Part shown: positions 2,516 through 20,699 of the stretch, in pieces | Layout: each line of letters opens with the position of its first letter | How positions within the stretch are numbered: position 1 is the first letter of the stretch | Source of the DNA: a virus | Direction: 5' to 3' (one strand) | DNA length: 25,630 nucleotides | IMG/VR virus record: IMGVR_UViG_3300017613_000283 | Coordinates: 1-25,630 of that record | Made by a program: the position numbers and the translations under genes | Notes under the pieces: model-generated | Database searches by the model: none | What the model saw: only the letters and a program-made list of their open reading frames with translations | Told to the model about the DNA's origin: nothing

Positions 2516-2524
2516 GGAGATGAA

Positions 2525-2950
2525 ATGAAACTAATAATTATGTTTTTAATAATGACTGCATTTACCTTTGGGCAGAATTTATTTTTTACCTCAGACACAA
2601 CGGGCACAGCCACTAACACAGAAGACTCAATTAAAATTGATTTAGGGTTTGATACAGAGTTAATACAATCACGTTATGGATATGTTCAAGAGCAAGCAAG
2701 GGCGATTGCTATGTACCGAACGGGTACTTGGACTAATGATTCTTTGGGGGTATATGCAGCAGTTGACCCAGATTCACCTTATGTTGCTGTTTATTTTGAC
2801 GAAGCCGTTTTAACGATGGTTGGCACAACCGGGGGTGATTATATATTATTTGACCCAAGACATTTTGCAGGGATAAGATATTTAATGTTTGTTTTACCTG
2901 CTGCTGAGGCGGCTAATAGGACGTACACCATTGTAAGAAGAAGATATTAA
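2525..2950 (+). CDS. Secreted beta-domain protein resembling a phage virion Ig-like domain (141 aa)
   Basis: Residues 1-17 (MKLIIMFLIMTAFTFGQ) form a short Sec signal peptide: a lysine, a strong hydrophobic core and an FGQ end like those of Bacteroidota-type exported proteins. The rest has the layout of a small beta domain common in phage head/tail regions: a W-T-N segment, a long beta region, an FDPRHFAGIRYLMFVL segment and a final basic strand (TYTIVRRR). In other phages this type of domain normally has no signal peptide. A strong AAGGAG ribosome site precedes the ATG. It sits directly in front of the portal gene. Either the mature protein joins the particle from the periplasm, or it acts at the cell surface. 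Confidence 0.6.
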   Translation: MKLIIMFLIMTAFTFGQNLFFTSDTTGTATNTEDSIKIDLGFDTELIQSRYGYVQEQARAIAMYRTGTWTNDSLGVYAAVDPDSPYVAVYFDEAVLTMVGTTGGDYILFDPRHFAGIRYLMFVLPAAEAANRTYTIVRRRY

Positions 2951-2959
2951 AAGGGCGTT

Positions 2960-4408
2960 ATGAATATTTTAACGATGCAATATCATAAAGACGTTGCTGA
3001 GAAAAATGATATTCGTGTTAAAGAGCAACAGAAGCAATATATCTATTACGCTGGGGATGCCTTTAATATAAAAAAATACTTGGTTGATGCTATGACCCTA
3101 TCTTATGCGGAGGAAGATATAGCAGAAATGCAATTACAGTGGATAAACATTACCGAGAAAATTATAAATCAAATGGCGGTAGTTTATCTTCAACCAGCGG
3201 TTAGAACTATAATGCTAAACGGGGAAGCAAGTGAGGATTTAACGGATTATTACAACGAAATAATGCCGATGAATATTAACACCCAGGATAAAGATGCTCA
3301 TAGATTAGCGAAGTTGCACAACGTATCGTTGCCCTTTGTTAGTTATAACGAAGAGAAGGGTAGGTTTGATTACAAAACCCAGCCGTCTTATCTTTATAAC
3401 ATTAAACACGAATATGGGAAATTAACAGAACTCAGTTACGAAAAATATTTCAAAGAACAAGGGGAAGATGCTTGGTATCAAGTCTATTGGACTGATGATG
3501 AACATTACAGGCGGGATGCTTATGGAAATAAAAGGGAGATGCCGGATGGGGATGGAGAGAATCCATTTGGGGTAATCCCCACACCGGTATTTAGATTAAG
3601 AAATACTGTCGACTTCTGGGGAGAAGGTCGCAGTGATGTAGTAAATGTCAACGAACAAACTAATCTACTTTTAACTAAGCTAATCAACTCAGATATTATT
3701 ATGGGTACGGAGGGAACTACCTTAGCAATAAATTTAGATTTGATTAAAAAGGGCGAAGAAGAAGCCGGAGAAAAGAAAGTAAAAACAGGGCGAAGGCATC
3801 CTATTGCTATTGATAACGTAAGGGCAGATGAAGTTCAACCAAGTTTACAGCATATAACAACCGACCCGCATATCGGAGAAACCCAAGATACGATAGACTG
3901 GTATATTAAAATGATTGCTAATTTTAATGGATTAAATCCTTCTACTATTTTATCTCAAATAAAAGATACGTCCGATTATCAGAAGTTAATGGATGCAGTA
4001 GATCAAATGGAAGTGAGGAAAGATGATATAGAACCTTGCAGGGCATTTGAGGGGGATAGATTTGAAATAACCAAAGCAATCAACAACGCTTATGTAGGGA
4101 CAGACAAAGGCAAGGGGTTACAGGAATTACCGGAAGATGCTACCTTATCAGTTGACTTTGCAGAAGTACAAGTACATAAAACTCTTGCAGATAGACAGGC
4201 AGATTGGGAATGGAAATTAGAAAGGAATATCATCTCTTTGATGGATGTAGTTAAAGAAATAAACCCGGATTTAGACAACGAACAAGCAGAGGAATTATTA
4301 GAAGCAAACCGAATCGCCAATAGTAAATTAAGTGGTAAGGCAGGACGGCTTGAATTATTAACAAAGACTCCCCTGGGGGAGGAAGAACAGGAAGAAGAAA
4401 ATGAATGA
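2960..4408 (+). CDS. Portal protein (482 aa)
   Basis: The portal is the dodecameric ring at one capsid corner through which DNA is packed and the tail attaches. Supporting features are the length (482 aa is typical), position directly before a coiled-coil scaffold and a capsid gene, and internal segments of portal type. A helical N-terminal region is followed by a central region around residues 210-270 (RLRNTVDFWGEGRSDVVNVN), which matches the conserved portal wing/stem pattern of a non-polar strand, a Gly-rich turn and a long polar helix. Later comes an NGLNPSTILSQ segment and a helix, which is the usual position of the stem-to-crown transition. The C-terminus is acidic and ends in a Glu-rich tail overlapping the next gene by eight bases. 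No other function fits as well. Confidence 0.8.
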   Translation: MNILTMQYHKDVAEKNDIRVKEQQKQYIYYAGDAFNIKKYLVDAMTLSYAEEDIAEMQLQWINITEKIINQMAVVYLQPAVRTIMLNGEASEDLTDYYNEIMPMNINTQDKDAHRLAKLHNVSLPFVSYNEEKGRFDYKTQPSYLYNIKHEYGKLTELSYEKYFKEQGEDAWYQVYWTDDEHYRRDAYGNKREMPDGDGENPFGVIPTPVFRLRNTVDFWGEGRSDVVNVNEQTNLLLTKLINSDIIMGTEGTTLAINLDLIKKGEEEAGEKKVKTGRRHPIAIDNVRADEVQPSLQHITTDPHIGETQDTIDWYIKMIANFNGLNPSTILSQIKDTSDYQKLMDAVDQMEVRKDDIEPCRAFEGDRFEITKAINNAYVGTDKGKGLQELPEDATLSVDFAEVQVHKTLADRQADWEWKLERNIISLMDVVKEINPDLDNEQAEELLEANRIANSKLSGKAGRLELLTKTPLGEEEQEEENE

Positions 4409-5018
4409 AACCGCTGATGCAGTAAAGAAGGTGGATGACGTGGACACTAACACGGATTCAAATAGTGGCAATGGAACAGATGACCATTCAACATCTGACA
4501 ACAAGGCTGGAAGCGTACCTCTTGCAACCTTTCTTGGAATGAAAGACACAGTTAAGCAGTTAGAGGGTAAAATCAAACAAATGGAAGATACCAAAAAAGC
4601 GGAGGCAGATGCAAAGCTATTAGAGGATGGCAAATTGCAAGAGTTGATTGATTCAACCAAGATAGAACTTGCAGAAACTAAATCTAAATTAGAAGCAGCA
4701 GAATCCGAAGCAGAAGAATCTAAAACATTTAGAGGTGCTAAGATTGAAGAATATAAAAAGAAACTTGGCGATAAATGGCAGGAGGATTATAGTAATCTTT
4801 CTTTGATTGCTCTTGATAAATTAACATCTCAATTATTAGGTGTTAAGCCGAGCCCGGCTACCGATAAAGGTGCAACGGGTGAACATACAGAAGTAGAGTT
4901 GACTGCTGAACAAAAGAAAGAAGCTGAATTGATGTTCCCTTACGCTCCAAAAGAAAAAGCGTGGGAATTTCATAAGCATAATTTAATAAAATTAGGTACT
5001 ATAAAAACGGAGAAATAA
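4401..5018 (+). CDS. Capsid scaffolding protein (205 aa)
   Basis: Scaffolding proteins act as temporary cores for prohead assembly. Here the first 30 residues are acidic and disordered (Asp, Asn, Ser, Thr). Roughly residues 45-125 form a charged coiled coil (KQLEGKIKQMEDTKK, then KLEAAESEAEESK). The C-terminal part is a basic helical segment (EKAWEFHKHNLIKLGTIK), as expected for a capsid-binding end. Its position between the portal and the capsid cluster and its length match the family. It overlaps the portal gene by eight bases. I see no serine-protease motif, so it does not look like a fused maturation protease. Confidence 0.75.
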   Translation: MNETADAVKKVDDVDTNTDSNSGNGTDDHSTSDNKAGSVPLATFLGMKDTVKQLEGKIKQMEDTKKAEADAKLLEDGKLQELIDSTKIELAETKSKLEAAESEAEESKTFRGAKIEEYKKKLGDKWQEDYSNLSLIALDKLTSQLLGVKPSPATDKGATGEHTEVELTAEQKKEAELMFPYAPKEKAWEFHKHNLIKLGTIKTEK

Positions 5019-5516
5019 ATGGCACATACGAGATATGGGTGCTTAAATCCAAATCCTAAAACCACAATGTACCCGGTTGCTGCAAGCCAGTATTTTCGTC
5101 CTGACTACCCCTGGTTTGTCTTTTTAGATGGCAGCGGTCATCTTGAATTAGCAGTTACAGCTACAGGCAAACTTTTTGGTTGTGTTGCGGCTGTCCCTAC
5201 GGGGCGGGGATCAGGGTCGAGTGATGATTACTGGTTATCAAGTGCATCAGCGGGTCAAGATGAACTACCTGTTATAACAGTAGACCAGAATGAATTGTTT
5301 TTATTCTTAGCAGACGACACACCAACGGTTTCGCAAGGTGGAAATGCGTGTGATTTGTTAGTAGATAATGATGGTACAGCGGGTTATGTTGATATAGGGA
5401 CAAGTTCAACAGACGTTCTGATAATTCAGGGCAGAGGTGTTGATTTTGTTGCTGGTGCAGGGGCTAATGACGTTGTAGTTAAAATGAACTCAGACGAACA
5501 ACAAATTGATACATAA
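5019..5516 (+). CDS. Candidate head decoration protein (165 aa)
   Basis: This protein lies between the scaffold and the major capsid protein, the usual place for a head-stabilising (decoration) protein. Its composition supports that role: small hydrophobic and Gly/Ser/Thr/Asp residues with alternating strands (LELAVTATGKLFGCV, ELPVITVDQNELFLFLAD) and no helices of note. It starts immediately after the preceding stop, with GGAGAAATAA just before the ATG as a ribosome site. It has two cysteines (near residues 50 and 110) and no enzyme motif. The alternative is a different small structural protein. Confidence 0.55.
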   Translation: MAHTRYGCLNPNPKTTMYPVAASQYFRPDYPWFVFLDGSGHLELAVTATGKLFGCVAAVPTGRGSGSSDDYWLSSASAGQDELPVITVDQNELFLFLADDTPTVSQGGNACDLLVDNDGTAGYVDIGTSSTDVLIIQGRGVDFVAGAGANDVVVKMNSDEQQIDT

Positions 5517-5532
5517 GAAAGGATAAACTAAA

Positions 5533-6507
5533 ATGGCTTTTAGAAGTGATATGACCGAGCTAATGACTCGGGATATGTATGGTTGGTTCTTGCAAGAGTA
5601 TAACCAACTATCGCCGGTTTATCCTCAAATCTTTGACGTACAACCCTTGGTAGGTGCGTATGCTCAAGAGACACAGGGTATCGGCTTGGGACAATTATCG
5701 GAAAGAGGCGAAGGTAACGATATTATTGCCTCTAATCCAATGGAAGGATATACTGTAATAGGTAAGTCCAGAACATTCTCAGATTCATTCTATTTAACAA
5801 TGGAATTTGTTGAGGATTCAACACCACAGAAAATGGCAAGTGTAATGAGTGGATTCGCTTCCACTTGGGCTCAGGGTGTTGTAAATAGTAAAGAAACATT
5901 TGCAGCTAAATTTTTTATCTACGGTGGTTTCACATCGGGAAGACACGATACCTTTGATAATACAATCACAGGTGTTATATCTGATTCAAGCGGAGATTTG
6001 ATTTACACAGGTAAACCATTCTTTGCTTTAAGTGGTAATAACCATCCGGCTAAAGACGGCTCAACATATTATAATAGTTTAGGTGCATTGAGTTTAACGA
6101 GTACAAACTTGCAGACAGCGTATAACTTAATGACTAATACTAATAACTATGATGAACGTGGTGAAAAAATATCATTAAGCCCGGATGTATTATTGATTCC
6201 CCCGGCTTTAAGATTCACAGCAAGGACTATTCTTGAATCCGAAGGCTCGGTGGGCGATGCAAACAATGATATAAATGTAACACAAAATCTTGTACAGCAA
6301 TTAGAATGGCAGTATTTAACAGACACCAATGGTTGGTTCTTAGGGAAGAAACAAAAGGGCTTGAAGTTCTACGAACGAAAAGCACCCGTTATTGATTTCT
6401 ATCAAGATGAAGTAAGTAAGAAATACTATGCAACTATTGATGCCCGCTGGGGCGGAACTGTTGATGAGTGGCGTCACTGGGTTGCTGCTAACATTTCAAC
6501 ATCATAA
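5533..6507 (+). CDS. Major capsid protein (324 aa)
   Basis: This is the likely shell protein. Evidence is position after the scaffold and decoration genes, a length typical of HK97-fold subunits without an N-terminal delta domain, and an internal pattern of that fold. It has a helical N-terminus (SDMTELMTRDMYGWFLQEY), a long strand-rich E-loop region, a helix around residues 95-125, and a segment near 217-235 (SPDVLLIPPALRFTARTIL) like the conserved A-domain strand-helix of Mu gpT-type capsid proteins. The last third ends in a segment like IDARWGGTVDEWRHWVA. No protease or scaffold segment is fused. Start: ATG at 5533, with AAAGGATAAACTAAA upstream. Confidence 0.8.
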   Translation: MAFRSDMTELMTRDMYGWFLQEYNQLSPVYPQIFDVQPLVGAYAQETQGIGLGQLSERGEGNDIIASNPMEGYTVIGKSRTFSDSFYLTMEFVEDSTPQKMASVMSGFASTWAQGVVNSKETFAAKFFIYGGFTSGRHDTFDNTITGVISDSSGDLIYTGKPFFALSGNNHPAKDGSTYYNSLGALSLTSTNLQTAYNLMTNTNNYDERGEKISLSPDVLLIPPALRFTARTILESEGSVGDANNDINVTQNLVQQLEWQYLTDTNGWFLGKKQKGLKFYERKAPVIDFYQDEVSKKYYATIDARWGGTVDEWRHWVAANISTS

Positions 6508-6516
6508 GGTGAAATA

Positions 6517-6747
6517 ATGGCTAAGAAAAAAGCTGATGGAAAGGGACCAACGGTTACACAAAACTTTTATAGTGGAGTAGAACCGTATGTTCCTGATGAA
6601 AGTGTAAACACCGAAGGGAAAGAAAGAACAGTCATCGGTTTAATCGAAGCCGAGAAATTACAGAAAGCAGGATGGGTGTTGGTTGATGCCCATCTTACTT
6701 CTAAAGACCCTTTTGGTGATAAAGAGTATAAATTTAGAAAGGAATAA
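6517..6747 (+). CDS. Small hypothetical head-region protein (76 aa)
   Basis: Unrecognised. The N-terminus is highly basic (AKKKADGKG), the central part is polar with VTQNFYSGVEPYVPD, and a short helix (IGLIEAEKLQKAGWVLVD) follows. It sits nine bases after the capsid gene and three bases before the beta-helix gene, so it is made with late head genes. A small minor head or connector role is possible but not shown by the sequence. Confidence 0.55.
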   Translation: MAKKKADGKGPTVTQNFYSGVEPYVPDESVNTEGKERTVIGLIEAEKLQKAGWVLVDAHLTSKDPFGDKEYKFRKE

Positions 6748-6750
6748 ATA

Positions 6751-7737
6751 ATGGGTCATATAACAAATTTCCCAAATGGAGTTTCCTCTTTCGGCGGACC
6801 TGTAACTGGCGGTGCTGGTTATAGATTTGACGGATGGTGGGATAACGATATTTGGTTTGTTGACTTTGACAATGGTAGCACTGGCTGGGAAGGCAAGGAA
6901 ATGAGCACCCCTGCCACAAACCTATACCAGTGTTTGAATGTAGCAGGTGCCGGCGATACTATCTTTGTGAGAGAAAGAACTTCTGTGCCGAGTGTTGGTT
7001 CTAATAATGCGGTAATAACTCCTGCGGCTGCTCAGGCAGCTAACTGGACTATCGGGCAGACACAACATCACTTGAGTATTATAGGCACCTCAAGGAATCA
7101 GGGGTTAGCTCACGGCGTAATGTTCCAAAGTTATGCTGCACTAACAACCCCGACTATAAATGTATTGGCACCCTATTGTACGATTGAGAATGTAGGGTTC
7201 AAAGGGATTGCAGCACAAGTAGCTAATGGATTAGTCCAGGGGTATTCATACACACCCGGAACGGAAGATGGATTTGCTTTGACAATAGATAATTGTCAAA
7301 TCAATGTTTACCAAAGTTCTAATGGTGGTGGAGTTGTTTTTGATTCTGGCAGATATTGCAGAGTCTTAAACACAGATTTCTGGCATTGCCGTTCAGGTGT
7401 TGAGTTGGCTTCAACTGCTGGCAATATCCACGGTTCAGTAGTCCAGAACTGCAATTTCTTCGGACAGGACACCGATATAGATGTGGATATTCTCTTAGGA
7501 GACAACTCACATACTTGGATTGATAGTTGTAATTTCTTGCACGATGTCCCTGCTAAAGCAGGCGGGTCGAGAACAAAATACATTCAATCGGTCGGGACAT
7601 CCGAAGGTGTAATCAGTAGATGTACTTTTGGAACAGAAGCAGAAGCCAAAGCAACGGACAATACACCAAGCAACTTAGATTTGGTTGGTAACATTGGTTC
7701 ATTCGGTGCAGGTTATTGGGGAGTTTCAACATCATAA
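6751..7737 (+). CDS. Right-handed beta-helix virion protein (328 aa)
   Basis: The protein has a short N-terminal adapter (GHITNFPNGVSSFG), a WWDNDIWF segment, and then repeated short coils with buried hydrophobic residues and Asn/Cys/Gly turns (for example TIENVGFKGI, TIDNCQINVY, CRVLNTDFWHCRSGVELAS, SVVQNCNFFGQD, HTWIDSCNFLHD). This is the pattern of a right-handed parallel beta helix. The coils run roughly from residue 115 to 290. The N-terminal segment resembles those of phage beta-helix proteins next to capsid genes, so it may be a capsid-attached fibre. I see no signal peptide. No catalytic residues could be assigned. Confidence 0.65.
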   Translation: MGHITNFPNGVSSFGGPVTGGAGYRFDGWWDNDIWFVDFDNGSTGWEGKEMSTPATNLYQCLNVAGAGDTIFVRERTSVPSVGSNNAVITPAAAQAANWTIGQTQHHLSIIGTSRNQGLAHGVMFQSYAALTTPTINVLAPYCTIENVGFKGIAAQVANGLVQGYSYTPGTEDGFALTIDNCQINVYQSSNGGGVVFDSGRYCRVLNTDFWHCRSGVELASTAGNIHGSVVQNCNFFGQDTDIDVDILLGDNSHTWIDSCNFLHDVPAKAGGSRTKYIQSVGTSEGVISRCTFGTEAEAKATDNTPSNLDLVGNIGSFGAGYWGVSTS

Positions 7738-7937
7738 TGGAAATAATAATTAGAAAAGGCAACCCAACAGGTAGGACAAGAAGCTCTATTAACGAGAGAA
7801 TGCAGGGTGAGTGGGGTACTTCAACCTTAACACCTGAGCAGAATGATAAATGCAAATACTTAGAGCGGGCAATTAAGGATAAATACGGAGTTAATAAGAG
7901 TATGATTAAACAATCTCATATTGACAGCGTTAAATGA
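7737..7937 (+). CDS. Small hypothetical protein (66 aa)
   Basis: I chose the ATG at 7737, which overlaps the previous stop (TAATG), rather than an earlier in-frame ATG at 7716 inside the preceding gene. The protein is basic (IIIRKGNPTGRTRSS) and has a helical C-terminus with C-K and Tyr-rich residues. No known domain was recognised. It overlaps the following gene by four bases (ATGA), so it is co-translated with it. Confidence 0.55.
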   Translation: MEIIIRKGNPTGRTRSSINERMQGEWGTSTLTPEQNDKCKYLERAIKDKYGVNKSMIKQSHIDSVK

Positions 7938-8425
7938 AGATAGTTATTATCGGGAAAGCTCCTGGATGGAAGAAAGCCCCGAGCGAAGGTGAGACTTGGG
8001 GCATTCATTCGCTTTGCCTTTGGCGACCTGTAAGTATGGTTTGGGATATGCACAGAACAGATGAAATAAAAACAGAAGAACAGGCAGATATAATTAAATA
8101 TGTTAATGATAATAAAGTTCCATATATGACTTTGAAGAAGCATAAGGACATACCAACCTCAATTGAATTTCCTTTAAACGAAATGCCTTTGATATACTCT
8201 GAATGCTCCGTTGCTTATATGGTTTGGTATGCTGTTCACAAAGGTGCAACACAAATTGATATGTATGGTGTTTGTTTAGGGCTTGAGGAAGAATATAGAG
8301 ACCAACGACCCTCTGTGGAGTATTGGGTCGGCTATGCGAGAGGGAAGGGAATAACGGTAATAATACACGGTAAATCTGCAATATGCAGAGGTAGCCAAAA
8401 ATTATATGGATATAACAGTGGTTAA
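7934..8425 (+). CDS. Rossmann-like protein of unknown function in the head-tail region (163 aa)
   Basis: The N-terminus is a strand followed by a glycine loop: residues 1-12 read MKIVIIGKAPGW, and later GETWGIH. Farther on are a VWDMHRTDE segment, an ECSVAYMVWYAVHKGATQID helix and an MYGVCLG strand-turn. This alternation of strand-Gly-loop and helix fits an alpha/beta Rossmann-like fold. I have seen similar proteins (IIGKGPGW-like starts, GETWGIN, DMH) in phages near the capsid, without a known role. It may bind a nucleotide or sugar; no catalytic set is certain. The start overlaps the previous gene by four bases. Confidence 0.55.
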   Translation: MKIVIIGKAPGWKKAPSEGETWGIHSLCLWRPVSMVWDMHRTDEIKTEEQADIIKYVNDNKVPYMTLKKHKDIPTSIEFPLNEMPLIYSECSVAYMVWYAVHKGATQIDMYGVCLGLEEEYRDQRPSVEYWVGYARGKGITVIIHGKSAICRGSQKLYGYNSG

Positions 8426-8966
8426 TATCAAAACAACTTGTGCTGAATGTGGAACTCCTTTGTGGGGGGAGAATCTTCACAAGCGGGGCGATGAATATTA
8501 TTGTTCTGCGGACTTTGAAAGATTATCTCCTGAAGAGGATATGGTAAATAAATTAACAGAAAAGCAATACGATGATTATCAAGAGTTATTTGATGGAACT
8601 GGAATAGAAGAGTTGGTAACTAATGGTGGATTTGATACGGACACAAGCTGGACTAAAGGAACGGGCTGGACAATTTCAGGCAAAGCAAGTTCGGATGGGA
8701 GTCAATCGGCAGAAAGTTTATTGACTCAAGAAAGAGCTAAAACGGTTGGTGTAGAATATGTTTATACATTTACGATTAGTGATTATTCAGCAGGTTCGAT
8801 AGCAGTGAGATATGGAACTTCATATACGGGGACGTCAAGAAGTGCTAACGGTACTTATACGGAAACATTAAGACAGTTGTTTGAATATAATAATAATGCT
8901 TTAGCAGCCGATGCAGATTTTATTGGTTCAGTAGATAACTTTTCAGTCAGGAGAAGAAAGATATAA
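8406..8966 (+). CDS. Zinc-finger plus jelly-roll fusion protein (186 aa)
   Basis: Two parts can be seen. Residues 12-36 carry C12-x2-C15, H25, C33 and D36, a layout like a small LIM/zinc-ribbon knuckle (Cys-x2-Cys ... His ... Cys-x2-Asp). Residues about 70-186 look like a carbohydrate-binding-type jelly roll: an NGGFDTDTSW opening, a GWTIS strand, YVYTFTISDYSAG, and a final VDNFSVRRRK. The same jelly-roll layout occurs at the start of the tail hub protein (13864). The gene overlaps the previous one by 20 bases, and GAGG lies about 12 bases before the ATG. It could be a connector-area decoration binding a cell-surface glycan; function unproven. Confidence 0.5.
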   Translation: MDITVVNIKTTCAECGTPLWGENLHKRGDEYYCSADFERLSPEEDMVNKLTEKQYDDYQELFDGTGIEELVTNGGFDTDTSWTKGTGWTISGKASSDGSQSAESLLTQERAKTVGVEYVYTFTISDYSAGSIAVRYGTSYTGTSRSANGTYTETLRQLFEYNNNALAADADFIGSVDNFSVRRRKI

Positions 8967-9691
8967 TGGTAGAATCATTTTTAACACAAAATTTAATTGT
9001 CAGGGGTGAAACAGCGATAGGTGATTATCTTCGGACAAGCCAGAGTGATTTCGCAAACATTTGGAAAGAAACCTTTGCAGATTTACTATTAGATTTAGAT
9101 ACGGTAGGATTAAAGATCAGACAACTTTGTGAACGCTTATCGCTGCAAACCTCAGTTACAAAAACGGCTGCTTTTAACGGTGCTATATCAAGTCAGGATT
9201 ATGCACAAAGAATGAGATTGGTAATTCCGGTTTCAGCTATAACGGGGGATGCGGTATTTACTTTACAAGGGTCAGATGACGACGGGACAACGTGGACAGC
9301 AGTAACAATGGTGGCTGATGGTGGGACTTCTGCGACTACTCATACTATTTCAGCAGCGGCGACAGGGAATAGTGCAAATACTTATGTGATCACAAGATTG
9401 TATGAAAAGTATAGATTGCAGTTAATTTCAATAGGTACAACAGTTACTTACACGGCTTATATGATTGAGGAAGTTTATACCACATTGCATAGGGAAATGA
9501 CCCGTAGAAAGATTTACGAAACATTGATGGCACAGGACAGAGATGTATATATGATTAAATTTGAAGAGTACGCAAATAAATATAAAGATAGATTAGCAGA
9601 AGCAAGGTTAAGGGTTGATTATACTGATGACGGAGATATTTCAAGAGAAGAAGGAGAAAAAAGAATCGCTAACATCAGGTTTACATTATGA
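8966..9691 (+). CDS. Head-tail connector candidate with an inserted beta domain (241 aa)
   Basis: The N-terminal 60 residues (LIVRGETAIGDYLRTSQ, then FADLLLDLDTVGLKIRQL) and the C-terminal 70 (TLHREMTRRKIYETLMAQ, then a long helix KFEEYANKYKDRLAEARL) look helical, like head-tail adaptor proteins. Between them, roughly residues 65-165, lies a beta-rich region (AVFTLQGSDDDGTTWTAV ... YEKYRLQLISIG) like the Ig-like domains common in virion proteins. Its place between the capsid cluster and the tail-terminator candidate fits a connector. The insertion would make it an unusually large adaptor. It overlaps the next gene by four bases. Confidence 0.5.
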   Translation: MVESFLTQNLIVRGETAIGDYLRTSQSDFANIWKETFADLLLDLDTVGLKIRQLCERLSLQTSVTKTAAFNGAISSQDYAQRMRLVIPVSAITGDAVFTLQGSDDDGTTWTAVTMVADGGTSATTHTISAAATGNSANTYVITRLYEKYRLQLISIGTTVTYTAYMIEEVYTTLHREMTRRKIYETLMAQDRDVYMIKFEEYANKYKDRLAEARLRVDYTDDGDISREEGEKRIANIRFTL

Positions 9692-10080
9692 GCTGGGCAG
9701 CAGATAGAGCTACTATAAAAACAGCCATTGAAGGATTAACGGGGTATATAATTATCCCTGAGAATAAGAAGCCAGAGGATGCACCTGGTACTCATCCCCA
9801 CAGGGCCTTTAGTATCGCATTAACCGGGGTAGATGACCCTGTAATGCATACAGGTAGGGCTTTGGTTTATGTCCATTCTGTTGAAGTGTTAGTAAAATAT
9901 TTAGGGGTTGATGATACTATACAAGCTACTAATGAAAGTTTGTTTTTAACATTACAGAATACGATTTCAGCATTAACAGGTTTTATAAATTTTAATTCAG
10001 AACCAACTTTAGAACCAATGGATAACAAGCACTTGCTTGGGACTTTGGATTTTCAGTTTGGTGTTGATTGTAATAGTTAG
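9688..10080 (+). CDS. Tail terminator / tail completion protein candidate (130 aa)
   Basis: The layout fits the small proteins that cap the siphovirus tail tube at the head end. An N-terminal helix (ADRATIKTAIEGLTG) is followed by strands and an HRAFSIAL segment, then VHSVEVLVKYLG, a helix TNESLFLTLQNTISAL and a final strand LGTLDFQFGVD. Length (130 aa) and position immediately before the tail-tube gene agree with that role. It overlaps the connector candidate by four bases. The family assignment rests on position and general fold pattern rather than a diagnostic motif. Confidence 0.55.
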   Translation: MSWAADRATIKTAIEGLTGYIIIPENKKPEDAPGTHPHRAFSIALTGVDDPVMHTGRALVYVHSVEVLVKYLGVDDTIQATNESLFLTLQNTISALTGFINFNSEPTLEPMDNKHLLGTLDFQFGVDCNS

Positions 10081-10088
10081 GAGATATA

Positions 10089-12394: not shown

Positions 12395-13864
12395 ATGGCT
12401 CAAGTTGTAAAAGACATAAACTTTAAGACTAAAGTAACCGGAACAGGTGCAGCTAAAAGTAAAATTCAGGGAGTAGAAAAAACTGCTGTAGGTTCTGCGA
12501 ATAAGATGAGTGCTGCATTTACTAAAATGGGCGGTATGATGATAGCTGCTTTTGGCGGTATGCAGATGGTGAATATTCTTAAGGGCACACTGGATGCATA
12601 CGGAAAACAAGAATTAGCAATCCAAAAACTTGACACCGCTTTAGGATATAGCACAAAATCACTTCAAGATTATGCTGCTGAACTTCAAAAAGTTACAACC
12701 TTCGGAGATGAAGAAACTATAAATGCAATGGCATTGATAGGAATGTTTGTTAAAGAGGAAGAACAAATCCAAAAGTTAACCGTTGCTGTCCAGAATTTTG
12801 CTGCTGCTAAAGAAGTTGATTTGGCAATGGCTGCCGATTTAATCACTAAAACATTTGCATCTTCTACTAATGCACTATCAAGATACGGATTAGTGGTTGA
12901 AGGAGCTGCCAACTCGAGTGAAAGATTAAATAGTTTATTAGATGCAATGAGTGTTTATAGTGGGCAAGCTGAAGAAAAAGCCAAGACAAACACTGGTCAA
13001 ATGATCAAACTTAAAAATAAAATTGGTGATTTAGAAGAACAAATTGGTGCCGGGTTAATTCCTTCAGTTATGGACTTAACGTCTATAATGGATGGTTTGA
13101 GTGGTGCAATAGGGGATAGTGATGGGTTGCTTTACTGGTTAACAAGACTAACAACTTTGCCTTTAATGTGGCCTGTTGAATTATATAAAGCTATTGCAGA
13201 CCTTTTAGATGGTAAAGACGGAGTAAAAGATTTGACATCCGAATGGAGCAAACAAAATGATGTGCTCAAAATAGTCGGTGGTCAGTGGGGAAAGTTTGGG
13301 TTGGCAGGAAAAGAAGGTTTAGGTTCAGTAAAAAATGAAGTTGTTGGATTAAATAAAGAACTAATAATAACAAGAGAATTATTAAAGGGTATTGTAGGCG
13401 AAGCAGGTAGAGAAATAACTGGTGGTGTTGCGGGCGAAACCGGCATCGGTGCTGGTGGGGCTAAAGAAGTCGGGACGGCAAAGGAATCTCCACTTGCAGC
13501 AGCTACATTTGACGGGTTAGAAGACGGATTTGATAAAGCCTCAGATATGATGGAGAGTGTATCAAGAAACTGGACAGCTACTTTAGAAAGCAACTTCAAT
13601 GAGTTCTGGGATTCGACCTTTGGTTATGCAAATTCATTATTAGAACAATTATTAAAAATGACTTTTACAGGTATACTTTCACAGGCTTTAAGTTTCTTAC
13701 CAGGTGGTGGGATTTTAACGGGGATTATAAGTGCATTTAGCAGTCCAACAAGTAGTGGTGCCGGTGTATACCCACAAACGATAGTAGTAAAATTAGGAGA
13801 TGAAGACTTGGCAACTGCTGTAAGAAAGGGAGACTCATATAATACAATGAGAAGACGAAACTAA
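12395..13864 (+). CDS. Tape measure protein (489 aa)
   Basis: This protein sets tail length. It begins with a helical polar region (KVTGTGAAKSKIQGVEKTA), has a hydrophobic membrane-like segment around residues 46-60 (KMGGMMIAAFGGMQMV), then long helices with Ala/Lys/Glu/Gln (TVAVQNFAAAKEVDLAMA), a central LIPSVMDLTSIMDGLSG hydrophobic part and a C-terminal Gly/Ala hydrophobic stretch (LLKMTFTGILSQALSFLPG). Its position after the chaperone pair fits. At 489 aa it is short. Using the usual ~0.15 nm per residue, the tail would be about 70 nm. The gene follows the nuclease without a gap. Confidence 0.75.
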   Translation: MAQVVKDINFKTKVTGTGAAKSKIQGVEKTAVGSANKMSAAFTKMGGMMIAAFGGMQMVNILKGTLDAYGKQELAIQKLDTALGYSTKSLQDYAAELQKVTTFGDEETINAMALIGMFVKEEEQIQKLTVAVQNFAAAKEVDLAMAADLITKTFASSTNALSRYGLVVEGAANSSERLNSLLDAMSVYSGQAEEKAKTNTGQMIKLKNKIGDLEEQIGAGLIPSVMDLTSIMDGLSGAIGDSDGLLYWLTRLTTLPLMWPVELYKAIADLLDGKDGVKDLTSEWSKQNDVLKIVGGQWGKFGLAGKEGLGSVKNEVVGLNKELIITRELLKGIVGEAGREITGGVAGETGIGAGGAKEVGTAKESPLAAATFDGLEDGFDKASDMMESVSRNWTATLESNFNEFWDSTFGYANSLLEQLLKMTFTGILSQALSFLPGGGILTGIISAFSSPTSSGAGVYPQTIVVKLGDEDLATAVRKGDSYNTMRRRN

Positions 13865-16800
13865 TGTTATCTCTAAATGATACCCCAACAAATGACAACG
13901 AAGCTGTTTTTTTATTAGAGATTAACTGCGAAGGAAGCAACTTAATTGGGAACTCAGGGTTTGATAGCGATAGCTCAACCGGATGGACTTTAACAGGTGA
14001 TTGGGCTGTAAATAGCAATGAGTTGCAATTTGACTTTGTTGATGATGCCACTGGTACTGCTCGTTATACAGTCAGTCAATTAAGTGCCGCTACTTATGTT
14101 TTTGAATATGAAATAATGTACGCTTCTGGGACGTTTGCTTTATATTTAGAAGGTGGTGGTGGAGGTTCAATACTTACCAATGATTTAACATTACCCCAAA
14201 CATTAGGGAAACACTCCCTTAGATTTGTAGCCAATACCGGCACCTTAGTTTCAATAGCAGTAACCGGTATGGATGGAACAGACGAGGTAGATATTGATGA
14301 CATTAAGTTAAGAAAATTAGAAGATGTAATAAGATTATCAACAAGGGATATCACTTTAACCGGGAATGTGTTTGATGGACAAGTAATTCAGTATAACGAA
14401 TTAACAGATGTTGATGCTTATATTGATACTGAAGCCGGTGGTGGCATAGGTGCTATAACGGGATATAGTTTTAAGATTGCGAGGCATACAGCCAATACAA
14501 GAACAGATGGATTTTTTAATGAGTTCTTCCCTGCTTACAACGGTGGACAATTAATAGCAAGGGAAATAAAATTTGGTGTAGTCTGGGATTCTGGAACTCC
14601 GGCATATACTGACGTGACCTGGTTAATGAATGGGAAGGTAATCGACTACAGTTACGAACCAAGGGCAATAAATATTATAGTATTGCAATCAACTGAAATA
14701 GATGCCAGGGAAGTTCCTTATTATTCAATTCAAAAAGATTTTAATAATTTTGTTTCTTATTTTGAAAATGCACCAGAGGAAAATTACGGAGCTATTATTC
14801 CAATCGTTTATGGTGACTTTGGGACTTGTACTCGGGCTTTGATGGATACTTTTACAGCTTCAAGATATGCACCAGGCATTATAGTAGACCAAGGTTCTTT
14901 TGAATCTATATACTGTTCGCATAAAGTAGAAACGGCATCAAATGGTCAAGCTGCTGGCGCTGATTGGGATGTAATGAAATATTTACCCGGGTTAGATATT
15001 TATGGTTATATAGTATCCACCGGTTCATCGGGCTCTAATACTGAATTAAACTGCAGAGTTGTAATGTTACAAAGTGCTGATGTATTATATGCTGGTTTAT
15101 GGATACCGTTAAACGAATTGTCAGAAGGAAGTGATATAGATGACATTTCTAACTTGACCGATCAAGATGAATCAACTTATGTTACAGTAGAAGACACTGG
15201 TGGTACTGATAATGTATTGGCACTAAGAATAAAAGGGAGCACTTCAACCGGAGAGGTTGGTTATGTTGATACCATCAACAACGGTAGTGCGACCGTATAT
15301 TTCAGGGCAAGCAATAATGATGATGGGGCGAATACAAGGGCTTACACTATTAAATATAGAAATGAGGGCTTAGCAACACCGGCTGATGGTACTGATACAT
15401 CGAGCACAGTTGCTGCGGCGATAGCAGATGCAACTCACGCCTTTGCTACGGCTACAGATGCTAACGCAGATAGTCAAATTCCTTGGACAATAGAGGAGTT
15501 ACAAAGTTTAGATTATTATTTTACTAATGATGATGCGGATGCAGGGGATGATATTCGGGTTTATCGTGCATATATATATATAGTAACAAAGCTCACGGGG
15601 GCGGTTGGTAGATATCACACTATATATGGCTGGGGGAAAAATCCTTGGAAGGGGGTTAGACCTATTGGGATACTCCCTATAACACAATATGAAGGGAGGG
15701 CAGAAGACCCTTGGGCTCCATATCATTTTTCCCACGCTACAAGGGAATCAAAAGGAAGGGCGGATAATGTCTTTTGTTTTATGAAGGGCAGAGAGTTTGG
15801 AAGATGGACAGATACAATATTGGCAGGGGCAAGAAGTAACGGATATAACGAGGGTGATTTAATAGAATGCCCACCTTATATAATCGAATCAATTTTAAGA
15901 GATGAATTATTTACTGAACGGGATATGCGGATGGATAGCTCTGCCGACACTACTCATTTTGTTGATGCAGAAGCTATGACAAAGGAAGATGATTGGTATA
16001 ACTATTCAGAATTTATAAACGCAGGCACTCCAGGGGCAAGGGTTCACGTATCGGATTATGTAGCTTCGACTAACACATTTACAATAGATGCTGCCGATGC
16101 TAATTTAGGTGCGACAGTTAATTATTTTCTTACCAACATCCAGGGTGATAATAAAATAGACTATGCAACTTTTGATGCAATAGGCAATACAACGAATGGT
16201 ACTCGCAAGAGTTGGAAGTTTGCTCGTTCTGTAAACACTAAACAACCTATTCAGAGTTTATTGAATGAACTTCTTTTTGAATCACATTGTATTATGTTTG
16301 AAACCGCAGATGAGACTACAGGGAAAACAAAAATAAAAATTAAGGCTTTGGACAAGGCAAGTGCTACGGAGTTTGATACAATAAATAATCCAATGCAAGC
16401 AAAAACAGCAGGGAACATAGAACAGTTAAGATGTTCACTCACACCTTTAGCAAATGTTTTTACCTCTTTCGAATTGTTTTATCATTATGATTACGGTAAA
16501 GGAGATTACACTAAAAGTATATTAGTTGATAGAAATGGGTATTCAAATCCTTCCGGCGGAACGACTTTAACAGACGAACACCAAAACCTTTGCCAATTTG
16601 CAGAAGATACATACAGGATTAGAAATCCCTTTACTTATTCAAGCAACTGGATTTATGACGATGCTACTGCTGAGTTCTTCTTAGATAAAAAGATAAGATG
16701 GTTTACCGAACAAAGATTAAGAGTAACAGTAACAGAGCCGATTGGTTCGGATGGAGATTCCGGTTATTACATCCAATGGGAGGTAGGCGATCAAGGGGTC

Positions 16801-16950
16801 ATTACATATACACAAGGGATGCCGGCAGAGTATGAATGGAATGCTACAACAGCAGACAGCCATCTATTTATGATAACAAGTAAACGGATAGTAACAAACC
16901 CACAGGGGTCGCCGTATATTATTTTTGAATTAATCGATATGGGAATATAA
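13864..16950 (+). CDS. Large tail hub / tail-tip protein with a jelly-roll insert (1028 aa)
   Basis: This large gene directly follows the tape measure, the place of the tail tip / distal-tail-hub protein. Residues 28-155 form a jelly-roll resembling a carbohydrate-binding module (NSGFDSDSSTGWTLTGDW, YVFEYEIMYASGTFALYL, then a final DIDDIKLRK). The rest is long beta-rich virion material with an NFVSYFENAPEENYGAIIP segment in the first third. The C-terminal part ends in strands (GDQGVITYTQGM, PYIIFELIDMGI). The start overlaps the tape-measure stop (TAATG). It probably contacts the cell surface; no enzyme motif was identified. Confidence 0.6.
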   Translation: MLSLNDTPTNDNEAVFLLEINCEGSNLIGNSGFDSDSSTGWTLTGDWAVNSNELQFDFVDDATGTARYTVSQLSAATYVFEYEIMYASGTFALYLEGGGGGSILTNDLTLPQTLGKHSLRFVANTGTLVSIAVTGMDGTDEVDIDDIKLRKLEDVIRLSTRDITLTGNVFDGQVIQYNELTDVDAYIDTEAGGGIGAITGYSFKIARHTANTRTDGFFNEFFPAYNGGQLIAREIKFGVVWDSGTPAYTDVTWLMNGKVIDYSYEPRAINIIVLQSTEIDAREVPYYSIQKDFNNFVSYFENAPEENYGAIIPIVYGDFGTCTRALMDTFTASRYAPGIIVDQGSFESIYCSHKVETASNGQAAGADWDVMKYLPGLDIYGYIVSTGSSGSNTELNCRVVMLQSADVLYAGLWIPLNELSEGSDIDDISNLTDQDESTYVTVEDTGGTDNVLALRIKGSTSTGEVGYVDTINNGSATVYFRASNNDDGANTRAYTIKYRNEGLATPADGTDTSSTVAAAIADATHAFATATDANADSQIPWTIEELQSLDYYFTNDDADAGDDIRVYRAYIYIVTKLTGAVGRYHTIYGWGKNPWKGVRPIGILPITQYEGRAEDPWAPYHFSHATRESKGRADNVFCFMKGREFGRWTDTILAGARSNGYNEGDLIECPPYIIESILRDELFTERDMRMDSSADTTHFVDAEAMTKEDDWYNYSEFINAGTPGARVHVSDYVASTNTFTIDAADANLGATVNYFLTNIQGDNKIDYATFDAIGNTTNGTRKSWKFARSVNTKQPIQSLLNELLFESHCIMFETADETTGKTKIKIKALDKASATEFDTINNPMQAKTAGNIEQLRCSLTPLANVFTSFELFYHYDYGKGDYTKSILVDRNGYSNPSGGTTLTDEHQNLCQFAEDTYRIRNPFTYSSNWIYDDATAEFFLDKKIRWFTEQRLRVTVTEPIGSDGDSGYYIQWEVGDQGVITYTQGMPAEYEWNATTADSHLFMITSKRIVTNPQGSPYIIFELIDMGI

Positions 16951-17111
16951 TGAAAGAAGAAACAAAAAGATTTTACGAGTTTACTTTTGAGCAACTTGTA
17001 GCAGCGTTGAAACTCAAAGGTAATTTTTTAACTTATGATAACAGCGACAGCGATGGGGCTAAAACCTCTGTGCTGAAAATCATAACAGTAGAAACAAAAG
17101 AACACAAATGA
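16950..17111 (+). CDS. Small hypothetical protein (53 aa)
   Basis: A short ORF fully open between the hub gene and the tailspike. Its ATG overlaps the hub stop (TAATG) and its TGA overlaps the tailspike ATG (ATGA), which is strong positional support for a real gene. The protein is polar, beginning MKEETKRFYEFTFEQ, with a VAALKLKGNF middle and a KIITVETKEHK end, probably helix then strand. I do not recognise it. It may be a small fibre-assembly protein, going by its neighbours. Confidence 0.6.
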   Translation: MKEETKRFYEFTFEQLVAALKLKGNFLTYDNSDSDGAKTSVLKIITVETKEHK

Positions 17112-19642
17112 GATACTTGTTCTTAATATTCTTTTTATGCGGGATTACCCAAGCTCAGATTTACAGAGACCTGGACATCTACAAAGGAGACAGCCATACT
17201 CTTTATTTTGAAGCAGATGGAGATGTTTCAAGTGATTCCTTGATGTTTGTTGTTAAGGCGGATAGGGACGATGATACTCCAAGAGTTATAACAAGAAGAA
17301 ACACAGCGGGTGGTGGGGGTGATACGCAGATAAAAGTTATCTATTCGACTAAAAGCACTATCCTTGTTAAATTAACTCAAACAAATACTGAAGGATTAAC
17401 GGCAGCAACTTATGTATATGATTTAACAGTAGATTCAACCACTACCCTTTACACTGGCTATTTGAAATTAAGAGATGAAGTTTCCGGCTCTGCTGATGGG
17501 GTAGCAACTTCAACACCTTATTATACTGTAGCTCTTGACACTCCAAACGCTTCACCCTCGTTCCCGATAGGGCAAGATTCAGATAATGGGTGGGATGTGG
17601 TTTCTGCGGGTGCACATATAGACACATTAGCAAAACAAAGGCATAGATACGGGGTATTGAATGTTTTAGAATATGGTGTAAAAGGGGATGGTTCAAATGA
17701 AAGAGTAGCGTTGCAGGCTGCTTTTGATATTGCCAATGATTCGGGTTGGACTATATGGATGCCTAACCCCGGTAATGGGATTTATATAGATGACCCCGGA
17801 TGGGATAAGAAAGGTTATGCTTCTGATTCAACTATTGTGAATAAAAGCTCCCCTATTATTATGGATGCTCCTTTATATTATGTAGGGACAAGGGCTGATG
17901 GGAGTGCTGGGAAATTAACTCTGACAGGTTACCCAGTAAAAAACGACACACTTTTAATTTGTGGTGAAACGGGGGTTAATTTTAATGATTTTTCGGGTTC
18001 TATTATAAGGGTTATGGCAGTCGGAAATGCAAGAACTGGCTCTGAGGGGGTAGGTGCTGATTCTACCGTTGGTGTTGTATTAAAAAATGTACGCAAAGCG
18101 CATTTTAGAATTGAAGATGCAAGATATTTTTTTACTAATGCCTTGCTAATCGGAGATATGGCTTCATTCGGGGGCAATGTAATCCACATAAATAACTTCC
18201 TCGGTGGCTATGTGATGTTACACATTATGGATAGAGGCACAGGCGGTTTTACAGGGAACAACCTTATTATAGGTGGAAGATTTCAACAACAGTTTATGCT
18301 ATTAGATTTACCCGTAACTATGATAATGCTAAGTAGCGGGGGGAACACATTTATACAGCCACAGTTACAAGCATTCAGAAATGAATTTTCTACTGGAATA
18401 CATTGCAAATCAAATAACAACACCTTTATAGATGTTTGGGGTGAATCATCGTTTCCGGTTGTTGACAGCACACACTATGCCTTAAAATTAACAGATAATG
18501 CAACCCAAAATAAATTTGAGTTTACAGTCGCAACAAATTTAACTTATAGTTTAGCTGGGGGACTTTACCCGAATATTGTTACCAACCCACAAGTTACTGC
18601 ATTAGGTTATACTGGCGAACAAGTATTATTATTCAGAGCAAATGATTTATCTAAAATCACAAATGTATATTCAAATGATTTAGCGAATAATAAACAAACC
18701 TACTACATACGGGGGATGTCATTCATAAGGGGGTTTGCTGTCGTACCGTGGTCTGTTCAAGATACGATTCCAGTTAAAGACACATATAATCTTTTTAAGA
18801 CTGACAATGGAATAAATTTAAGTAGAAGTTTAGCTATGGGAGTAATGGTAGATTGTGAGGACATAAAGGAATATTCTTTGGCAGTTTCTTTCAAAAGAGA
18901 CACTACTACCAGTTACTCACCAGCGATAGACTCAGTTGGTGTTCCGTTTATTATATTGTATGATTCTCTTGGGGCTACGATTACAGCCGATAGTTCAATA
19001 AACGGGCTTACCTCATCTATGAGCCACAGATATTGGGATTACGATAACACAAGATTGAAAGGTCATACTGGTATTGCATCCTTTGTATTTAGTGCCGATG
19101 GGCAAATAGGTCAACTGCGAGAATATTTTTCACTCCCAACCACAGCCAAGACAGCATTCATAGGGATAACGGGCAAGACGGCTGATGTTTTCGGAGGGAA
19201 TACTTATTCAAACGACTTAGTAGATTACACTTCTTTTGCTTTATACGCCAACCAAGAGACAAGCACTTGGGCTGGATATGATGATAGCTCTAATACAACC
19301 GACTTGCCATTAGCTTTAGATGTTGGTGGTAAGTGGCAACGAGGTTCTGTAATATATAACGATACCGTGAACTCAGGTGGGCATATAGGATGGGTGGCTA
19401 CTACTGGCGGGGTGGTGTTTACAGAGGACAGGGCGGATGCCACGGTTTATAGTTATCAGGGGTTTCACGCTATGTTCAGCGATTCTACTATGTGGGTCAC
19501 GCAAAAAATAGGGGCAACAAGCTACGCAGAACCAACAATAACAGGCAAACAAATTGGTGAATTTGTCCAAGACAGCACGGTTGTTTGGAGAAAAGTAGGT
19601 AAACAAGGTGGAGTATTCAAAACATTTGGGAAAATAGATTAA
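17108..19642 (+). CDS. Secreted-type beta-helix tailspike (844 aa)
   Basis: Residues 1-17 (MRYLFLIFFLCGITQAQ) are a Sec signal peptide with a QAQ end. Residues about 20-140 resemble the N-terminal adapter domain of tail fibres and baseplate proteins: a strand DLDIYKGDSHTLYFE, a KADRDDD loop, then an AATYVYDLTVDST strand-turn. Residues 189-195 (YGVKGDG) and the following ALQAAFDIA helix are the classic opening of a pectate-lyase-like right-handed beta helix, followed by many short coils. No catalytic residues could be assigned. The C-terminal part is beta-rich (WQRGSVIYNDTVN). A tailspike with an export signal is odd for a virion protein. Confidence 0.7.
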   Translation: MRYLFLIFFLCGITQAQIYRDLDIYKGDSHTLYFEADGDVSSDSLMFVVKADRDDDTPRVITRRNTAGGGGDTQIKVIYSTKSTILVKLTQTNTEGLTAATYVYDLTVDSTTTLYTGYLKLRDEVSGSADGVATSTPYYTVALDTPNASPSFPIGQDSDNGWDVVSAGAHIDTLAKQRHRYGVLNVLEYGVKGDGSNERVALQAAFDIANDSGWTIWMPNPGNGIYIDDPGWDKKGYASDSTIVNKSSPIIMDAPLYYVGTRADGSAGKLTLTGYPVKNDTLLICGETGVNFNDFSGSIIRVMAVGNARTGSEGVGADSTVGVVLKNVRKAHFRIEDARYFFTNALLIGDMASFGGNVIHINNFLGGYVMLHIMDRGTGGFTGNNLIIGGRFQQQFMLLDLPVTMIMLSSGGNTFIQPQLQAFRNEFSTGIHCKSNNNTFIDVWGESSFPVVDSTHYALKLTDNATQNKFEFTVATNLTYSLAGGLYPNIVTNPQVTALGYTGEQVLLFRANDLSKITNVYSNDLANNKQTYYIRGMSFIRGFAVVPWSVQDTIPVKDTYNLFKTDNGINLSRSLAMGVMVDCEDIKEYSLAVSFKRDTTTSYSPAIDSVGVPFIILYDSLGATITADSSINGLTSSMSHRYWDYDNTRLKGHTGIASFVFSADGQIGQLREYFSLPTTAKTAFIGITGKTADVFGGNTYSNDLVDYTSFALYANQETSTWAGYDDSSNTTDLPLALDVGGKWQRGSVIYNDTVNSGGHIGWVATTGGVVFTEDRADATVYSYQGFHAMFSDSTMWVTQKIGATSYAEPTITGKQIGEFVQDSTVVWRKVGKQGGVFKTFGKID

Positions 19643-19673
19643 AAATATTATTCAATATAAAAAGGTGTAAAAA

Positions 19674-20699
19674 ATGTTTAAGAAACTAATTTTAATAATA
19701 GTTCTTTTTACAGGAGTAACTTTTGGACAAAATCCGTTGATGCTTTTGTTTGCGAGTGCAGCAGCATCGTTTGATTCAACATTTATATATCAAGTGACGG
19801 ATTCTTTAGCTACTGATATAGCGGAGATTCTGGATGGGACAACTCCTTTCTCAGGAGATATTACACTTGAAAACGAAGAAATAATTAGCAATGGTACAGA
19901 CGGAGATGTGAAGGTCACTTTTAATGAAGATGCTGTCAACTGGGGTGATTTTCACGTTGCTTCAAGTTTGGCGGGTGCTGACGTAGAAGTGGGCAATACT
20001 ATGGGTCTCATTTTCCAAGGCAATGACGATGCAGAGAATGTAACAGATTATGCAAGGATAGAATTGTATGTAGCTGATGAAACACACCCCTCTGAAGATT
20101 CTTGGATAAGGTTTTGGAATACTGTGAGCGGTACTTTGACTAATGTGTTTAGTATAACAGGCACGAGTTATGGTGGTTCAGCCACTTCGGCGACTCTTGA
20201 TGACTTGCTTAGTTATGGGAAATCTACCTTTAATGAAAATGGGTTAGATGAAGATTTCAGAATAGAAACAGATGGTGAAGATTCTGCTTTTGTAGTAGAC
20301 GGTACAGACGGTGATATTTATATGGAAGGACTTGGCACGGGCACAGGCACTCAACTTTCAAGATTAGCCAACACAGACGAGATAGTAGAAGAGTCAAGTT
20401 CAATGCGTTTCAAAGATGATATAGAAGATTGGTATGTAAGTGTAAGAGATGTAATGAAATTGAAACCACGCCAATGGGTATGGAATGAGGAAAGTTCAAT
20501 GCCTCCTAATTTTCACGATTACGGGATGGTAGCTGAAGAAGTGTACGAGGTAATACCTGAGGCTGTAACTTACAACGATAAGGGGCAGATACAATCTTGG
20601 GATGCTAAAACATTAGCAACTTATTTAGTAGGTGTAGTACAAGACCAGCAGAAACAAATCAATGCTTTAGAAGAACGAGTAACTGCATTAGAGAAATGA
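19674..20699 (+). CDS. Secreted-type fibre with S74 self-cleaving C-terminal chaperone (341 aa)
   Basis: Residues 1-19 (MFKKLILIIVLFTGVTFGQ) form a Sec signal peptide with an FGQ end. The middle is a fibre-like region of repeated DGDVKVTFNEDAVN- and DGDIYMEG-type segments. The C-terminal 100 residues are the intramolecular chaperone of the peptidase S74 family: SSMRFKDD, then KLKPRQWVWNEE, HDYGMVAEEVYEVIPEAV, TYLVGVVQDQQKQ and a final coiled coil. The Ser and Lys of the usual catalytic dyad are present at S242 and K247 (five apart as in endosialidases), so self-release is likely. It has AAAGG eight bases upstream. The last four bases overlap the next gene. Confidence 0.75.
   Translation: MFKKLILIIVLFTGVTFGQNPLMLLFASAAASFDSTFIYQVTDSLATDIAEILDGTTPFSGDITLENEEIISNGTDGDVKVTFNEDAVNWGDFHVASSLAGADVEVGNTMGLIFQGNDDAENVTDYARIELYVADETHPSEDSWIRFWNTVSGTLTNVFSITGTSYGGSATSATLDDLLSYGKSTFNENGLDEDFRIETDGEDSAFVVDGTDGDIYMEGLGTGTGTQLSRLANTDEIVEESSSMRFKDDIEDWYVSVRDVMKLKPRQWVWNEESSMPPNFHDYGMVAEEVYEVIPEAVTYNDKGQIQSWDAKTLATYLVGVVQDQQKQINALEERVTALEK

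What the first reader, a model, noticed from the sequence alone, without database searches (positions are those of the whole stretch)
2525..20699. Three proteins that look like virion parts carry Sec signal peptides
Seen: residues 1-17 or 1-19 of the genes at 2525, 17108 and 19674 are hydrophobic signal sequences ending in FGQ, QAQ and FGQ. Known: the partner domains (virion Ig-like, pectate-lyase-like tailspike, S74 fibre chaperone) normally come without export signals because virions assemble in the cytoplasm. Inference: these proteins may be exported and join particles only in the periplasm or at lysis, or act on the outer surface as depolymerases, decoys or superinfection barriers. The S74 fibre type also occurs in secreted bacterial proteins, so exchange with a host is possible.
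Basis: partly seen in the sequence, partly recalled or inferred. Interest (0 to 1): 0.78.

Follow-up and report, generated by a model that had tools for sequence, protein, structure and literature searches.

The report
Phage tail fibres with export signals
Three late genes of this uncultured tailed phage, two of them fibre- or spike-like, start with host-style export signals, and cultured marine phages carry the same kind of signal on proteins found by mass spectrometry in their particles, which suggests that some tailed phages send tail parts out of the cytoplasm before completing their particles.

Summary
The genes at 2525, 17108 and 19674 start with 16-18-residue Sec/signal-peptidase-I signals. 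Each is followed by Q at +1, the 'Bacteroidetes Q-rule' (PMC5837995). No other annotated window gene does this (3 of 28; null about 3e-4 per gene). Starts are supported by Shine-Dalgarno (SD) sites or ATGA coupling. The only near relative found keeps the signal on its 2525 homologue.

S74 fibres in general lack signals (1 of 36). The exception led to a family of fibres at the tail/lysis junction of uncultured phages. All 54 members with an intact start have a signal and 53 have +1 Q, although the signals form 15 unrelated clusters.

Cultured Cellulophaga phages phi10:1, phi18:3 and phi39:1 carry Q-rule-signal 'tail fiber', 'pectate lyase' and structural proteins; nine are annotated from virion MS/MS.

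Most likely, the two tail-end proteins (and perhaps 2525) are virion adsorption proteins that are exported, cleaved to pyroglutamate starts, and joined to particles once the holin opens the membrane. Signals and virion membership (in phages of the same type) are shown; cleavage, export and the place of joining are inferred. Host: an SD-using Q-rule lineage, perhaps Ignavibacteria.

The parts
2525..2572 (+). signal peptide of the 141-aa protein, MKLIIMFLIMTAFTFG, followed by Q17
   Evidence: SD AAGGAG just upstream
2525..2950 (+). exported-type small protein immediately 5' of the portal gene; mature part probably a beta-sandwich
   Evidence: homologue with signal at the same place in L004 (6163-6579; BLAST 30% id, E 3e-14); weak model
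17108..17155 (+). signal peptide of the tailspike-like protein, MRYLFLIFFLCGITQA, followed by Q17
   Evidence: ATGA overlap with upstream small ORF
17108..19642 (+). 844-aa tailspike-like protein
   Evidence: position after the tail genes; phrog_1084 on aa 21-127 directly after the signal (E 0.0024); PF12708 motif at aa 185-220, sub-threshold
19674..19727 (+). signal peptide of the S74 protein, MFKKLILIIVLFTGVTFG, followed by Q19
   Evidence: SD AAGGTG upstream
19674..20699 (+). 341-aa fibre-like protein with C-terminal Peptidase_S74 chaperone
   Evidence: PF13884 35-39 bits, 14 PHROG matches mostly tail fibre:
20397..20570 (+). Peptidase_S74 (chaperone of endosialidase) domain
2960..4408 (+). 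portal-like gene, context for 2525
   Evidence: inference from size and order next to the MCP; syntenic with L004 6579-8045
5533..6507 (+). major capsid protein, no signal peptide
   Evidence: phrog_133/371; 62-63% id to L004
22360..22950 (+). endolysin (phage lysozyme), start of the lysis block after the S74 gene
   Evidence: PF00959 1.8e-36
22929..23588 (+). candidate Rz-like spanin
   Evidence: phrog_9841, E 0.011, weak
23967..24806 (+). metallophosphoesterase; a metallophosphatase-like gene also follows the endolysin in the L045 lineage
   Evidence: phrog_221; L045 gene by reading its sequence

Best explanation
The window is part of a tailed phage of a diderm host that follows the Q-rule and uses Shine-Dalgarno sites. 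Two adjacent genes at the tail/lysis junction (17108 spike-like, 19674 S74 fibre-like) and one small gene before the portal (2525) encode precursors made for Sec export. Host signal peptidase I would cut before Q, and a host glutaminyl cyclase would turn that Q into pyroglutamate. The two tail-end proteins are probably virion adsorption proteins. They would fold and oligomerise in the periplasm and attach to tails when the holin opens the inner membrane, so virions would be completed in two compartments. Shown: the signals, their conservation, the cassette position, and virion membership of comparable signal-bearing proteins in cultured phages according to MS/MS-based record annotation. Inferred: cleavage, export, the place of joining, and the role of 2525.
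For: (1) Signals are far above chance and all have +1 Q. (2) The 2525 homologue in L004 keeps a different signal, also cut before Q, at 30-31% protein identity. (3) In the L045 fibre family all 54 intact-start members carry signals and 53 have +1 Q; the signals fall into 15 unrelated clusters. This includes 15 loci whose match lay outside the signal, so the search did not select for it. (4) N-termini are conserved and C-termini vary: of 42 pairs with at least 90% N-terminal identity, 9 have similar C-termini and 13 have no detectable C-terminal similarity. (5) The order tail genes, signal-bearing fibre, small signal proteins, lysis genes recurs in the contigs examined. (6) Q-rule-signal proteins annotated from MS/MS: phi10:1 gp091-094, phi18:3 gp085-087, phi39:1 gp26 and, by eye, gp25. 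(7) phi46:1 and phi46:3 share a host strain, but the phi46:1 virion tail fibre has no signal, so the signal belongs to the fibre lineage and is not forced by the host.
Against: No cleavage, localisation or assembly data exist for the window phage or, as far as I could read, for the Cellulophaga phages. The MS/MS notes come from record annotation, and the source paper was not available. Exported proteins could co-purify with particles. Most cultured Bacteroidota phages checked lack signal-bearing fibres, so the route is optional. The window proteins share no sequence similarity with the MS-detected ones; the link is by type, position and signal. The 2525 gene lies in the head module, where no MS-detected signal protein was seen.
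Confidence: 0.5

Rival explanations
1. The proteins are exported but work outside the virion, as soluble or envelope-bound depolymerases, receptor blockers or superinfection barriers. Their detection in virion preparations is co-purification.
For: Export signals are clear. Pectate-lyase and fibre domains suit glycan binding. Small signal-bearing proteins in the same cassettes look non-virion.
Against: In phi10:1 and phi39:1 they were annotated by MS/MS alongside tail- and connector-type proteins. The variable C-terminus pattern and S74 chaperone are typical of receptor-binding fibres. No type IX secretion domain was matched in the Pfam scans.
Confidence: 0.22
2. The hydrophobic start is not used for export. 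It stays on the protein and serves virion attachment or oligomerisation in the cytoplasm.
For: Tailed-phage assembly is cytoplasmic in all classical models (own knowledge).
Against: Retention of a -3/-1 site and +1 Q across 15 unrelated signal sequences is expected for a peptidase substrate, not for a structural helix. In the window spike the phrog_1084 domain begins right after the cut site.
Confidence: 0.13
3. The genes are secreted host proteins captured by the phage (morons) and have a host-surface role.
For: S74 domains also occur in bacterial proteins (own knowledge); the signals are host-like.
Against: They sit inside the structural module at the tail end, recur in that place in unrelated phages, and are annotated from virion MS/MS in cultured ones. 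Bacteroidota genomes could not be searched here.
Confidence: 0.1
4. Wrong start codons: the true proteins begin after the hydrophobic segment.
For: Some annotated phage starts are wrong in general.
Against: SD or ATGA signals at all three starts, no near downstream start that leaves an intact domain in 2525 and 17108, and conservation in relatives.
Confidence: 0.02

Closest known systems
Cellulophaga baltica phages phi10:1 (NC_021802), phi18:3 (NC_021794), phi39:1 (NC_021804), and by similarity phi46:3 and phi13:2
   Same: Fibre-, spike- and pectate-lyase-type genes with Q-rule signals, mostly in tandem near the lysis genes; several annotated from virion MS/MS
   Different: No sequence similarity to the window proteins; their hosts are flavobacteria, whose phages here show almost no SD use; no signal-bearing gene beside the portal was seen
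L045/G005-type uncultured phages (IMGVR_UViG_3300042887_000744, 3300042868_001476 and about 50 more)
   Same: S74 or other fibre with Q-rule signal after the last tail gene, then small signal proteins, candidate spanin lipoprotein, endolysin, metallophosphatase-like gene
   Different: Mostly much longer fibres (up to 1616 aa); similarity to the window is confined to the S74 end
Q-rule proteins of Porphyromonas gingivalis Nixviridae phages (PMC10367356)
   Same: Phage-encoded signal peptides that obey the Q-rule
   Different: Five proteins of unknown function, read there as host-surface modifiers, not as virion fibres
Filamentous phage adsorption protein pIII
   Same: An adsorption protein made with a signal peptide and held outside the cytoplasm before it joins the particle (own knowledge)
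   Different: Filamentous phages assemble in the membrane and are extruded; the window phage is a tailed phage that lyses
Peptidase_S74 tail fibres
   Same: C-terminal S74 chaperone domain
   Different: 35 of 36 intact-start S74 proteins surveyed have no signal peptide

Membership tests
Bacteroidetes Q-rule signal peptidase I substrates | hydrophobic Sec signal with -3/-1 site | tested here: met
   all three, with a crude scorer, not SignalP
Bacteroidetes Q-rule signal peptidase I substrates | Q at +1 | tested here: met
   3 of 3, background Q 3.3%
Bacteroidetes Q-rule signal peptidase I substrates | cleavage and pyroglutamate at the mature N-terminus | not testable with these tools
   needs N-terminal mass spectrometry
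Bacteroidetes Q-rule signal peptidase I substrates | host is a Q-rule organism | tested here: inconclusive
   No host found in genome scans. SD use 42% against 0-11% in cultured Bacteroidota phages points to a Q-rule lineage with SD use; Ignavibacterium album has Q-value 77% (PMC5837995)
Peptidase_S74 tail fibre (19674) | S74 domain above Pfam cut-off, C-terminal, coiled-coil end | tested here: met
Pectate-lyase-fold tailspike (17108) | match to PF12708 above cut-off or confident beta-helix model | tested here: not met
   E 0.089 only; single-sequence model unusable, pLDDT 33. Resemblance only
Virion Ig-like protein (2525) | match to an Ig-like family | tested here: not met
   no Pfam or PHROG match; weak beta-sandwich model
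Virion adsorption protein with export signal (Cellulophaga type) | present in purified virions | not testable with these tools
   shown only for phages of the same type, through record annotation
Virion adsorption protein with export signal (Cellulophaga type) | located after the last tail genes and before lysis genes | tested here: met
   17108 and 19674 yes; 2525 no
Type IX secretion cargo | C-terminal sorting domain | tested here: not met
   no such Pfam match in the window proteins; S74 or typical fibre C-termini in the relatives

The most novel reading that the evidence does not exclude
Some tailed phages of Q-rule bacteria complete their virions in two compartments: heads and tails in the cytoplasm, receptor-binding fibres in the periplasm after Sec export, signal-peptidase cleavage and pyroglutamate capping, with joining when the holin opens the inner membrane.
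Probability: 0.45. Interest if true: 0.9.

Novelty: new variant of a known kind. Interest (0 to 1): 0.74.

Why it matters
Tailed phages are taught to assemble wholly in the cytoplasm. Virion fibres that carry conserved, peptidase-type export signals would mean that the receptor-binding parts take a different route. That gives fibres a periplasmic folding environment and a chemically capped N-terminus, ties particle completion to lysis timing, and makes host Sec, signal peptidase and glutaminyl cyclase virion assembly factors. It also gives a simple sequence test (signal plus +1 Q on a fibre) for spotting receptor-binding genes and Q-rule hosts in uncultured phages. Cultured Cellulophaga phages exist in which the idea can be tested directly.

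Tried and rejected
Direct relatives of the 17108 protein were not found, nor new relatives of 2525 beyond L004. Genome scans with the MCP and the S74 end gave no bacterial host (one unrelated gammaproteobacterial S74 gene). TerL, MCP, endolysin and metallophosphatase matches were too spread to name a host. A Bacteroidota-wide S74 search was not possible without a genome handle. The AlphaFold model of 2525 was weak; Foldseek hits are only suggestive. The model of 17108 failed. I thought phi39:1 gp23 might hide a signal behind a wrong start; checked and dropped (my notebook entry is wrong on this point). Controls without a signal: P12024S gp10, phi38:1 S74 protein and phi46:1 gp06. The 2013 paper that I believe lies behind the Cellulophaga MS/MS notes is not in the held library. 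Eight literature searches found no report of signal peptides on virion fibres of tailed phages; most subscription journals are missing from that library.

Full report
OBSERVATION. The window is a 25,630-base IMG/VR virus record. The three named genes start with MKLIIMFLIMTAFTFG|Q, MRYLFLIFFLCGITQA|Q and MFKKLILIIVLFTGVTFG|Q. A crude Sec/SPI test (positive start, hydrophobic core, -3/-1 site) finds a signal followed by Q in exactly these three of 28 genes. It passes 0.03% of shuffled N-termini and none of 4944 internal positions of the other genes. The starts are backed by SD sites (2525, 19674) or an ATGA overlap (17108). Q at +1 is the mark of the Bacteroidetes Q-rule: signal peptidase I exposes Q, which is cyclised to pyroglutamate (PMC5837995, PMC10653852). 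The first of these papers gives a Q-value of 77% for Ignavibacterium album.

DOMAINS. 19674 is a true S74 protein with tail-fibre profile matches. 17108 resembles a spike: a weak phrog_1084 match starts at residue 21, directly after the signal, and a pectate-lyase-type motif lies at residues 185-220, below threshold. 2525 matches no family; a weak model is a beta-sandwich, with weak similarity to small uncharacterised phage proteins.

NEAR RELATIVE. L004 (capsid protein 62-63% identical) has a 2525 homologue in the same place before the portal, with its own signal SLA|Q, and a second Q-rule protein at 4289. L005, more distant, has signal-bearing late proteins, one with +1 Q, so exported late proteins may not be limited to Q-rule hosts.

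HOST. 42% of window genes have an SD 5-mer against 6% background. Six cultured Bacteroidota phages have 0-11%. Together with the Q-rule this points to an SD-using relative of Bacteroidota; Ignavibacteria is a guess. No host was found.

IS A SIGNAL NORMAL ON FIBRES? No. Of 36 S74 proteins with an intact start (35 of them viral), one has a signal: L045, a 1385-aa fibre with LKA|Q. Its N-terminus led to 56 loci. All 54 with an intact start have a signal and 53 have +1 Q by the scorer; in the last (L111) Q follows C. The query contained its own signal, but 15 of these loci matched only outside it and all 15 have one. The signals fall into 15 unrelated clusters, so what is kept is the function, not the sequence. 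N-termini are conserved while C-termini, S74 or not, differ even between phages with nearly identical N-termini, the usual pattern of receptor-binding fibres.

CASSETTE. In the contigs examined the signal-bearing fibre follows the last tail gene and is followed by small signal-bearing proteins and lysis genes. G005 appears complete, since its ends repeat. The window has the same order: tail genes, 17108, 19674, then endolysin, candidate spanin, metallophosphatase.

VIRION EVIDENCE. Among 20 cultured Bacteroidota phages checked, phi10:1, phi18:3, phi46:3, phi13:2 and phi39:1 carry large Q-rule-signal proteins, usually several in a row. Record notes say 'experimental MS/MS proteomics analysis' for phi10:1 gp091, gp092, gp093 (pectate lyase) and gp094 (tail fiber), phi18:3 gp085-087, and phi39:1 gp26 (pectate lyase) and gp25. 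The strict scorer misses gp25, which reads LEMAA|Q by eye. Other MS-detected head and tail proteins in the same lists have no signal. phi46:1 and phi46:3 infect the same strain, yet the phi46:1 virion tail fibre has no signal. The signal is therefore a property of the fibre lineage.

MECHANISM. The simplest reading is export, cleavage and pyroglutamate capping of the fibres, and joining to virions when the holin opens the inner membrane or in the fresh lysate. Export and joining are inferred. Rivals are co-purification of secreted proteins, an uncleaved hydrophobic anchor, and captured host genes. For 2525 the same export is likely, but its role is unknown.

PRIOR ART. P. gingivalis phages encode Q-rule proteins of unknown function (PMC10367356). 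A survey of phage DGR proteins took the lack of signal peptides as support for phage origin (PMC6199706). Rumen Bacteroides phages were noted to have one or two signal peptides, without assignment to virion fibres in the passages read (PMC5723332). I found no paper that reports signal peptides on virion fibres of tailed phages in the held open-access library; the paper that I believe lies behind the MS/MS notes could not be read, so it may mention them.

Noticed in passing
window 22316-22420: An ORF with a good SD (MKVLFYFLLFASTYACQPVWLMRL...) overlaps the endolysin start in another frame, and the endolysin frame is hydrophobic upstream of its weak GTG start. This may be a split signal or SAR start (frameshift or sequence error) or an overlapping lipoprotein-like ORF.
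   Followed up: partly
window 430-975 and 984-1580: Two adjacent late genes are paralogues (33% identity) and match no family.
   Followed up: partly
L004 4289-4618: A second Q-rule signal protein, perhaps beta-barrel-like, lies right after the terminase gene in the near relative.
   Followed up: no
L121 (G013) 2339-9389, minus strand: Two signal-bearing large proteins (441 and 1509 aa) and three small ones in a row in a 55-kb contig.
   Followed up: partly
L045 4830-5428: Two small Q-rule proteins (73 and 124 aa) follow the fibre and are conserved in its lineage; the larger matches phrog_5474 weakly, including its start.
   Followed up: no
window, all genes: Strong SD use (42% of genes) together with Q-rule signals, unlike cultured Bacteroidota phages; a possible host marker for uncultured phages.
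   Followed up: partly
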